A stretch of 64,000 nucleotides of DNA from Thalassobaculum sp. OXR-137 (GTDB lineage Bacteria; Pseudomonadota; Alphaproteobacteria; Thalassobaculales; Thalassobaculaceae): NCBI RefSeq assembly GCF_034377285.1, contig NZ_CP139715.1, positions 2,464,001 through 2,528,000 of the forward strand, in the 5' to 3' direction. Made by a program: the position numbers and the translations under genes. The notes under the pieces were generated by a model that did no database searches, had not been told where the DNA came from, and saw only the letters and a list, made by a program, of their open reading frames with translations. Position 1 is the first letter of the stretch; each line of letters opens with the position of its first letter. Of the stretch, positions 7,170-8,581 are shown piece after piece.

Positions 7170-7190
7170 GTCGTCCTTGTAACTTATCGT

Positions 7191-7352
7191 CTTCCGCTTC
7201 TGGTAGAGTTTCGGAAGCGGTGGTGGATGGGACGCCGAGTCGTCCTGGAGCGTGCGAGCCCGAACGTCAGCAAGGTTGCCCATCCACCGTTCATCCCTCG
7301 AACCCGAACAGTCGCCGGGGCCGCCATATGGCGAGCCCGTTTAGGCAAGGCA
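7191..7352 (+). ncRNA. Candidate bridge RNA of the IS110 element
   Basis: The left-end non-coding region folds as expected for a bridge RNA. There is a 5' hairpin CCGCTTC/GAAGCGG (7194-7200/7214-7220). Then comes a 10-bp stem GGTGGATGGG/CCCATCCACC (7222-7231/7279-7288) enclosing a 47-nt loop. A further structured part contains the palindrome CGCCATATGGCG (7322-7333). In the first loop GTCGTCCT (7239-7246) equals the left target flank 7170-7177, and CGTCAG (7265-7270) is the reverse complement of the right target CTGACG (8321-8326). In the second part ACAGTCGC (7308-7315) equals the element's right end (8314-8321), and CAAG (7346-7349) complements CTTG at its left end (7176-7179). These are the expected left/right target and donor guides. 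Ends are approximate. Confidence 0.72.
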
Positions 7353-7360
7353 GGGTAGCG

Positions 7361-8305
7361 ATGGACCAGGTGATCGTGGGTATCGACGTCTCCAAGAGCC
7401 GTCTGGATGTTCATATCCTGCTCGGCGCGCAAGGGCCGGGCGAATGTGAGGCGGTGCCGCGTGACGGCGCTGGGATTGCAGCGTTGGCCGAGCGTCTTGG
7501 AGCGCTGGGAGCAACGCTGGTGGGGGTCGAGGCGACGGGCGGCTTCGAGACGGTGGTGGCGGCGGGTCTGGCCGGGGCGGGCTTGCCGGTCGTCGTGGTC
7601 AATCCGCGCCAGATCCGGGCCTTCGCCCAGGCGCTGGGACGTCGGGCGAAGACCGATCCGATCGATGCGGAGATGATCGCCCGGTTCCTGGCGGCGACCC
7701 GGCCTGAGCCGCGCGCATTGCCCGATGCGTCCGGCCGCCTGCTGGCCGATCTGGTGGCCCGGCGACGGCAGATCGTGTCGATGATCGCCGCCGAGCGCCA
7801 GCGTCAGAGCCGCCTCACGGAACCGCGGGTGCGGCGCTCGATCCTGCGTCTGATCACGGCCCTGGAGAAGGAACTGAACGAGGTCGACCGCGAGATCGAC
7901 GACCAGGTCCGCGGCTCGCCGGTCTGGCAGGCACAGGAGGATCTGCTGCGCAGCGTGCCCGGCATCGGTCCGGCCACCGCCCGCACCCTGCTCGCCGATC
8001 TGCCCGAACTCGGCCGACTGGACCGGCGCCAGATCGCCTCCCTGGCGGGGCTGGCACCGTGGACGCGCCAATCGGGAACTTGGCGCGGCAAAGCCTTCAT
8101 CGGCGGCGGACGCGCGAGCGTACGCACCGCCCTGTTCGTCGCAGCCATGGTCGGCGCGCGCTACAACCCTACCCTCAAGGCCTTCCACGCCAGACTGATC
8201 GCTGCAGGAAAGCCCAAGATGGTCGCCCTCATCGCCGTCGCCAGAAAGCTGCTTACCATCCTCAACGCCATCGTCAGAGATCAAAAGCCATGGCAAGTCG
8301 CTTGA
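7361..8305 (+). CDS. IS110-family transposase (DEDD recombinase)
   Basis: The 314-residue protein starts [20 protein letters not shown], with the first catalytic Asp of the RuvC-like DEDD domain. It continues with [10 protein letters not shown] (Glu) and [19 protein letters not shown] (Asp residues). The C-terminal Transposase_20 domain carries [20 protein letters not shown] and [20 protein letters not shown], which holds the catalytic Ser region ([12 protein letters not shown]). It looks intact and full length. The ATG at 7361 is chosen because GIDVSK lies at the usual N-terminal position; an upstream in-frame start at 7220 would read through the structured RNA. In this family the enzyme works with the element-encoded RNA to join a CT core. 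Confidence 0.92.
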
Positions 8306-8320
8306 CCAAGATCACAGTCG

Positions 8321-8581
8321 CTGACGAAAGTCAGGACCAACGCATGGATGGTCGAGCTGGGGCGTAGGCCGTTGTTCGGCATGAGAGGGCGGCTGGATCC
8401 TGACTTGCGTCAGGATGACGGTTTGGCAGGGCGTGGCCGCTACCCGTTTGCGTCGTCCTGATGCAAATCAGGACCTGTGTCCGGACGGATGATTTAGGGC
8501 TGCGTCTTGATCCTGACTTTCGTCAGGAGGACGGATAGGGTTGGCCGTTCCGTTCCGCCGTCATCCTGACCTCCGTCAGGA
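8321..8581. repeat. Array of REP-type palindromes TCCTGA-N6-TCAGGA
   Basis: Four intact 18-bp palindromes lie at 8398-8415, 8456-8473, 8511-8528 and 8564-8581. All have the form TCCTGA(C) loop (G)TCAGGA, usually next to GACGG or CGTC. A fifth copy is split by the insertion sequence: its right half is at 8321-8336 and its left half at 7170-7177. A further copy is at 10839-10856 next to map. The copies differ mainly in the central 4-6 bases, with paired changes that keep the stem. The array fills the gap before the MFS gene and leaves little room for its promoter. Confidence 0.85.

What the first reader, a model, noticed from the sequence alone, without database searches (positions are those of the whole stretch)
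7170..8326. IS110 element whose bridge RNA, target site and donor ends can all be read from sequence
Removing 7178-8322 restores a perfect REP palindrome (GTCGTCCT joined to CTGACGAAAG with one shared CT). The left-end RNA candidate then shows four matches in the order expected from the IS621/IS110 bridge-RNA model: GTCGTCCT (7239-7246) identical to the left target, CGTCAG (7265-7270) complementary to the right target, ACAGTCGC (7308-7315) identical to the element's right end, and CAAG (7346-7349) complementary to its left end. The first two lie inside the loop of a 10-bp stem (7222-7231/7279-7288). Target, core and guides thus support each other without any database search. If the element is active, it is an RNA-guided recombinase that aims at REP sequences.
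Basis: partly seen in the sequence, partly recalled or inferred. Interest (0 to 1): 0.85.

Follow-up and report, generated by a model that had tools for sequence, protein, structure and literature searches.

The report
Bridge-RNA insertion sequence aimed at REPs
A small jumping gene in this bacterium carries its own guide RNA, and comparison of its ten copies and about two dozen relatives shows that the guide picks a repeated hairpin sequence as its landing site; it is a clean new example of a mechanism first described in 2024.

Summary
The element (7178-8322, 1145 bp) is an IS110-family insertion sequence with an intact recombinase. The genome holds ten copies with 0-1 mismatch, all cut into the same REP arm at the same base, with a CT core on each side. 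Left guide (8 of 9 bases) and right guide (core plus 4) pair at all ten sites; the only variation there is absorbed by G-T wobble.

Ends change little, targets much, and guides follow: 70 of 75 right-target pairs are kept across 15 guide types; no shuffle of 20,000 reaches that. Donor guides co-vary; the right one is the split UU-NNN-CAAG of IS621, not CAAG alone. The loop stem shows compensatory changes. A junction promoter can form in 22 of 22 elements with both ends, this one included.

REP targeting, bridge RNA and rG:dT tolerance are published for IS621. So: a new member of a known kind. RNA expression and activity are inferred, not shown.

The parts
7178..8322 (+). IS110-family insertion sequence, 1145 bp (equally 7176-8320, because of the CT core on both sides)
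   Evidence: 10 genomic copies with 0-1 mismatch and unrelated flanks beyond the REP
7170..7177 (+). left target GTCGTC plus core CT
   Evidence: identical to the left target guide
8321..8326 (+). core CT plus right target GACG (continues into the REP)
8302..8307 (+). TTGACC, -35 box of the circle-junction promoter, overlapping the tnp stop codon
   Evidence: TTGA[C/T], 17 nt, TA[A/T] in 22 of 22 elements with both ends, this one included; consensus match only
7180..7185 (+). TAACTT, -10 box of the circle-junction promoter
7194..7220 (+). 5' stem-loop of the predicted bridge RNA (7194-7203/7211-7220)
   Evidence: not recovered by the family fold
7222..7288 (+). target-binding loop: stem 7222-7231/7279-7288 enclosing left guide, small stem, right guide
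   Evidence: 13 of 15 stem pairs of the family alignment have changes on both sides
7239..7246 (+). left target guide GTCGTCCT (pairs with bottom strand of left target and core)
7265..7270 (+). right target guide CGTCAG (pairs with top strand of core and right target)
7308..7315 (+). left donor guide ACAGTCGC (matches right end 8314-8320 plus first core base)
   Evidence: co-varies in L129, L130, L131
7318..7338 (+). small stem between the donor guides (7318-7321/7335-7338)
7341..7349 (+). right donor guide, split UU (7341-7342) + 3 nt + CAAG (7346-7349), pairs with CTTG.AA of the left end
   Evidence: co-varies in L127-L131; same geometry as IS621 (PMC11208158, passages)
8314..8320 (+). left donor ACAGTCG (right end of the element)
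7361..8305 (+). recombinase gene, 314 aa; D9, E57, D99, D102, S238
   Evidence: Pfam PF01548 and PF02371; aligned to IS621; residues located

Best explanation
It is an IS110-type (IS110 subgroup, not IS1111) bridge-RNA insertion sequence. The recombinase excises the element as a circle; the joint of right and left ends forms a sigma-70-like promoter that transcribes the left end, giving a bridge RNA of about 170 nt and the recombinase message. One RNA loop pairs with both strands of a REP arm (GTCRTC-CT-GAYG), the other with the circle joint (ACAGTCG-CT-TG.AA), and the recombinase joins them at the CT core. Guide complementarity, co-variation, boundaries, protein family and promoter spacing are shown by sequence; circle, transcript, RNA binding and activity are inferred from IS621.
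For: Ten copies, one boundary, one REP arm, one orientation. Guides pair at all ten sites, with G-T wobble at the two positions where the read bases vary. All 10 fall in the class GTCRTCCTGAYG, of which 74 empty sites remain, while 1674 places lie within two mismatches of the exact site (1207 for the backward control); occupied sites have fewer wobbles than empty ones, 0.5 against 1.1, one-sided P 0.02. Right guide and right target co-vary: 70 of 75 pairs over 15 guide types, mean 2.0 of 5 for exchanged guides, 0 of 20,000 shuffles. Left guide, wobble counted half: 4.1 against 3.1 of 5 over 24 types, 0 of 20,000. Four more distant multi-copy elements (36-43%) fit too, read by eye. Donor guides follow changed ends. 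Four RNA helices: 96.8% of cells paired, 15 pairs with double changes, 0 of 500 shuffles. Junction promoter 22 of 22. Protein: IS621 E 9e-35, ISCro4 E 1e-35.
Against: No RNA or circle data. The left guide fits several relatives poorly (L013 and L020 2 of 5; L018, L019, L032, L129, L131 3 of 5; L020's left flank is a scaffold joint with an N). In the window's element, left-target base 1 (C at ten of ten sites) is mismatched by the guide's A, right-target base 5 pairs at 2 of 10 sites and base 6 at none. The right donor guide's two-base part does not fit G380 (by eye). L121 seems to lack both target guides (by eye). The relatives share ancestry, so shuffles overstate independence. The single-sequence fold has z -1.95 only. 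Of the single-position wobble tests one is not significant (P 0.18).
Confidence: 0.94

Rival explanations
1. The recombinase recognises the REP hairpin itself (protein or DNA structure), and the guide-like words are a by-product of shared ancestry with the REP.
For: All ten own sites are REPs; by a strict perfect-stem test 9 of 20 joined sites, L002 included, carry a stem that 3% or fewer of shuffles reach.
Against: The other 11 of 20 sites do not pass that test (imperfect stems were not scored), yet their right guides pair at 4 or 5 of 5 bases. The other REP arm, equally palindromic, is entered in 0 of 10 copies. Guides follow targets across 15 types.
Confidence: 0.04
2. An inert fossil: the copies were spread by recombination or gene conversion, the guides are relics of a formerly active element.
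For: No expression or movement data.
Against: Ten copies with 0-1 mismatch, no stop inside any of the ten frames, catalytic residues intact. No match above 39% identity in the five other genomes held of the genus, although two of them hold 40 and 31 guide-compatible REP sites: this looks like a recent burst.
Confidence: 0.05
3. IS1111-type element (subterminal inverted repeats, RNA downstream of tnp).
For: ISPa11, an IS1111-type element, also enters REPs (PMC11187229, passages).
Against: The long non-coding region is upstream; the longest inverted word between the ends is 5 nt, reached by 67% of shuffles; the guide that pairs with the bottom strand comes first, as in IS110.
Confidence: 0.01

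Closest known systems
IS621 (E. coli), bridge-RNA recombinase; PMC11208160 (passages and section 9) and PMC11208158 (passages)
   Same: Recombinase over nearly full length with D, E, D, D, S; CT core; REP target; target loop with left guide, small stem, right guide; split right donor guide; junction promoter; natural sites with A where the guide has G (rG:dT), reported there at target position 4.
   Different: Diverged protein (E 9e-35); different REP, guides and ends; right guide pairs with core plus 5 nt in most of 15 guide types (base 5 pairs in 12 of 15; in the window's element core plus 4), against 4 bp in IS621, whose paper notes longer ones in some orthologues; left-target wobble at position 5 instead of 4.
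ISMex17 (Methylorubrum) and other alphaproteobacterial IS110 elements
   Same: Nearest element with an IS name among the 40 of 3229 plasmid records listed, 59% identical protein; PMC2680597 (passages) gives it 7 copies in strain DM4.
   Different: The passages seen say nothing of guide or target; compared here by protein only.
ISRm19 (Sinorhizobium meliloti), IS110 family
   Same: 4 of 4 copies in REPs (PMC1525189: Results section and table passages).
   Different: Different REP; no RNA described there; not aligned here.
ISEc21 seekRNA system (PMC11187229, passages)
   Same: Upstream non-coding region, guide order, natural redirection by three altered bases (ISMch6).
   Different: Different target; not aligned here.

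Membership tests
IS110 family | DEDD RuvC-like domain plus Transposase_20 domain with serine | tested here: met
   PF01548 E 1.5e-23, PF02371 E 2.7e-17; D9, E57, D99, D102, S238 aligned with IS621 D11, E60, D102, D105, S241 (PDB chain numbers run two higher by my count)
IS110 family | no terminal inverted repeats, short core at both ends (feature recalled and in PMC1525189 passages) | tested here: met
   longest inverted word 5 nt, 67% of shuffles reach it; CT on both sides in 10 of 10 copies
IS110 family | circular intermediate | not testable with these tools
   needs reads or PCR
bridge-RNA (IS621-like) system | target guides that co-vary with the target | tested here: met
   70 of 75 pairs, 0 of 20,000 shuffles; four more distant elements by eye
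bridge-RNA (IS621-like) system | donor guides that co-vary with the ends, split right donor guide | tested here: met
   ACGGTCG (L129), ACAGCCG (L130, L131), GAAG (L127), AU (L128-L131); 22 of 25 rows fit the split form as printed
bridge-RNA (IS621-like) system | conserved two-loop RNA fold | tested here: met
   target-loop stem with compensatory changes; donor-loop pairs kept but nearly invariant, so they say little
[quoted passage not shown]
   17-nt spacing in 22 of 22 elements with both ends; by consensus only
bridge-RNA (IS621-like) system | RNA transcribed and bound by the recombinase | not testable with these tools
   no RNA data
IS1111 subgroup | subterminal inverted repeats, non-coding region downstream of tnp | tested here: not met
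Rfam RNA family | match at gathering score | tested here: not met
   0 matches in the window

The most novel reading that the evidence does not exclude
This is one twig of an IS110 clade, seen mostly in alphaproteobacteria, that keeps its ends and protein but is re-aimed again and again, by few-base changes in the guides, at sites of whichever host it enters, often dispersed hairpin repeats. L124 and L125 would be the minimal case: elements 94.4% identical, with only two differences in the first 190 bases, one of them in the right guide and matched by the one-base change in the right target. That would make natural reprogramming by single substitutions, rather than by guide exchange, directly testable.
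Probability: 0.5. Interest if true: 0.55.

Novelty: new member of a known kind. Interest (0 to 1): 0.42.

Why it matters
The element gives a compact natural experiment on bridge-RNA specificity: ten filled and 74 empty sites in one genome of three contigs, two wobble positions that separate site classes, and relatives whose guides and targets change together. It carries the IS621 rules (split right donor guide, rG:dT tolerance, junction promoter) to a distant branch, most of whose right guides read core plus 5 nt; in IS621 a longer right guide was engineered and improved specificity (PMC11208160, section 9).

Tried and rejected
Rfam has no model that matches at its gathering score. An orthologous empty site in the genus was sought: the ilvD-MFS locus is there in three genomes, but without a strict REP, so it gives no before/after pair. 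A REP-associated Y1 transposase was sought in the own genome: none (5 of 14 control genomes ring). Hairpin as the common rule of all targets: rejected, 9 of 20 by a strict test. IS1111 membership: rejected.

Co-variation was computed three times. In one search the anchor hit the wrong place in 11 of 22 rows with a right end (62 of 105 pairs over 21 types, best of 20,000 shuffles 54); the left-side test with those anchors gave 7 of 5000 shuffles at or above the observed. One search repaired most rows, leaving L128, L130 and L131 wrong (70 of 85 over 17 types, best shuffle 53). One search moved those three to the second anchor (70 of 75 over 15 types, best shuffle 54). The second anchor was chosen after seeing that the first did not pair, so that step is not blind; searches also lie above all their right-side shuffles.

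Rows dropped. One copy per element was counted; further copies of the same element (L016, L017, L106-L110, L148-L151, L153, L159) were not. Loci of 50% identity or more without a readable left end or guide were left out (L022, L023, L026, L028, L030, L031, L094, L102, L104, L121, L132, L142, L146), and short fragments (L033-L038, L154-L158) did not pass the match threshold of that script. L021, L122 and L126 have no right end and are not in the right-target count. L020's left flank contains an N and stayed in the left-target count. Relatives below 50% were left out of the statistics; four multi-copy ones were read by eye afterwards, the other such loci not at all. One search's automatic right-donor pick was wrong for L032 (UU-AGG-CAAG is there by eye), empty for L021, and off by one core base for L015, whose left core is TT.

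Full report
What is there. The window holds an intact insertion sequence at 7178-8322. Its gene (7361-8305) encodes a 314-aa protein with the DEDD_Tnp_IS110 and Transposase_20 domains; in the PDB it matches the ISCro4 and IS621 transposases over residues 5-311 and 6-311, with D9, E57, D99, D102 and S238 in the places of the residues that PMC11208158 (passages seen) reports as essential. The non-coding left end is 183 nt; the right end is 17 nt after the stop codon.

Boundaries. The own genome (5.65 Mb, 3 contigs) holds ten copies, with 0 or 1 mismatch to the window copy over 1145 bp. All ten are flanked by CGTC[A/G]TC-CT on the left and by GA[C/T]G after the element's last CT on the right, with unrelated sequence beyond the REP. 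Removing the element and one CT gives the REP. The genome has 55 strict REP palindromes TCCTGAYNNNNRTCAGGA, and none with the pattern read backwards. In the REPs whose context was read (loci L063-L077, the window and the ten copies' flanks), as a rule one arm carries GTCR before it; the element sits in that arm in 10 of 10 copies, in one orientation.

Guides at the ten sites. The left guide pairs with 8 of 9 positions at every site, four sites using one G-T wobble. The right guide pairs with core and four bases at all ten sites, one of them with a G-T wobble; base 5 pairs at two sites, base 6 at none. There are 74 unoccupied GTCRTCCTGAYG sites: 19 without wobble, 28 with one, 27 with two; of the ten occupied, six have none, three have one, one has two. 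The shift to fewer wobbles has one-sided permutation P 0.02; the single-position tests are weaker (0.04 and 0.18, two-sided Fisher). In the own genome 51 places match the fuller REP form of this pattern. IS621 shows the same rG:dT tolerance (PMC11208160, section 9 read in full).

Relatives came from named genomes (27 loci) and unnamed ones (matches in 76 of 385 genomes of the class; in 70 of 199 of one family; lists capped), with extra copies fetched. Of these, 24 distinct relatives of 52-71% protein identity, plus the window's own element, had a readable left end with guides; the dropped rows are listed under Tried and rejected. The ends barely change, the targets change a lot. For 15 distinct right guides, 70 of 75 non-core pairs are kept against 2.0 of 5 for exchanged guides, and the best of 20,000 shuffles reaches 54. 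The sixth right-target base is not read (2 of 14). Examples: GAGGT with ACCUCAG (L014, G316 copies), CCCCA with UGGGGAG (L019), CATTC with GAAUGAG (L020), CTGCC with GGCAGAG (L024), CCCGC with GCGGGAG (L032). The left guide gives 4.1 against 3.1 of 5 over 24 types, wobble counted half (0 of 20,000), a weaker signal, partly because many targets are runs of C and partly because some relatives seem to sit in poor sites. Shared ancestry makes the shuffles optimistic; the changes are nevertheless spread over many separate guides.

A second look at distance. Four multi-copy elements of 36-43% identity were then lined up copy by copy and read by eye. Left-target words recur in the left end in 4 of 4 (GCCCAACC in G380, AGATCCCT in G101, GTCCCCT in G434, CACACCT in the second element of G316). 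Where the right end was printed (3 of 4), the right guide fits: CAGCGAG for CT-CGCTG (G101), GGGAAG for CT-TCCC (G434), GGGTGAG for CT-CACCC (G316). The split right donor guide fits in 3 of 4, with AC where the left end reads TGTGT (G101) and AU where it reads TGTAT (G434, G316); in G380 the two-base part does not fit. No statistics were made on these.

Donor side. The left donor guide equals the last seven bases of the right end before the core in all 22 elements with both ends, also where these change (ACGGTCG in L129; ACAGCCG in L130 and L131). The right donor guide is split: two bases, three unpaired, then four. In the window it is UU (7341-7342), AGG, CAAG (7346-7349), pairing with CTTG and, one base on, AA. 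Where the left end reads TGTAT (L128-L131) the two bases are AU; where it reads TCTAA (L127) the four are GAAG. As printed, 22 of 25 rows fit; the other three are explained under Tried and rejected. This is the IS621 arrangement A157-U158/C162-G165 (PMC11208158, passages).

RNA fold. Across 19 left ends the target-loop stem has 15 pairs, 13 of them with changes on both sides; a small stem lies between the two target guides; donor-loop pairs exist but hardly vary. The single-sequence fold is only moderately more stable than shuffles (z -1.95).

Promoter. In the circle the right end's TTGACC and the left end's TAACTT stand 17 bp apart; the spacing is the same in 22 of 22 elements with both ends. 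In the linear form the two boxes are more than a kilobase apart, so the promoter exists only after excision. IS621 does the same (PMC11208158, passages).

Age and spread. Near-identity of ten copies, and absence of any match above 39% identity in the five other genomes held of the genus, although two of these hold 40 and 31 guide-compatible REP sites, point to a recent arrival and burst. This is inference.

What is known. REP targeting by IS110 elements was described for IS621 and others (PMC1525189: abstract, Results section, table and discussion passages; PMC11208160: passages and section 9). The bridge RNA or seekRNA mechanism is established (PMC11208160, PMC11208158; PMC11187229, passages). 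In the listings of the paper searches (one search showed 10 of 658, 22 of 23) I saw no paper on guides or targets of this clade; one search lists one that names ISMex17. The library is incomplete, and ISfinder could not be searched. The nearest relatives with an IS name among the 40 plasmid records listed are ISMex17 (59%) and ISMno7 (52%).

Beyond the finding. One pair of single copies is suggestive, not proof, of natural re-aiming by point mutation. Nine of 20 joined sites in the clade lie at hairpins that pass a strict test, so dispersed palindromes are common targets but not required.

Noticed in passing
L124 and L125 (left ends): Two 94.4% identical relatives whose left ends differ at two bases only, one in the right target guide and matched by a one-base change in the right target.
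   Followed up: partly
L121 (left end): A relative (68% identity) whose left end seems to have lost the whole inside of the target-binding loop, both target guides included, while the donor guides remain (by eye); single copy seen.
   Followed up: no
window 8398-8581 and 10839-10856, and own genome at large: 55 strict REP palindromes, often in inverted pairs about 50 bp apart, in a nearly complete genome without a detectable Y1 (RAYT-type) transposase; what spreads them is open.
   Followed up: partly
window 7118-8614: The region between ilvD and an MFS transporter gene has no strict REP in three same-genus genomes, while the window has four intact REPs there plus the one split by the insertion: the cluster is not shared.
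   Followed up: partly
L015 and L021, left junction: Left core reads TT where the element's own core is CT, fitting a genomic target with a TT core; IS621 tolerates a changed first core base (PMC11208158, passages).
   Followed up: no
L148, L149, L150 (G485): Three copies of one relative with identical guides but left targets plus core GACCCCT, GCCTCCCT and AACCCCT: left-guide tolerance in nature.
   Followed up: no
window 8302-8307: The -35 box of the junction promoter overlaps the stop codon of the recombinase gene.
   Followed up: no
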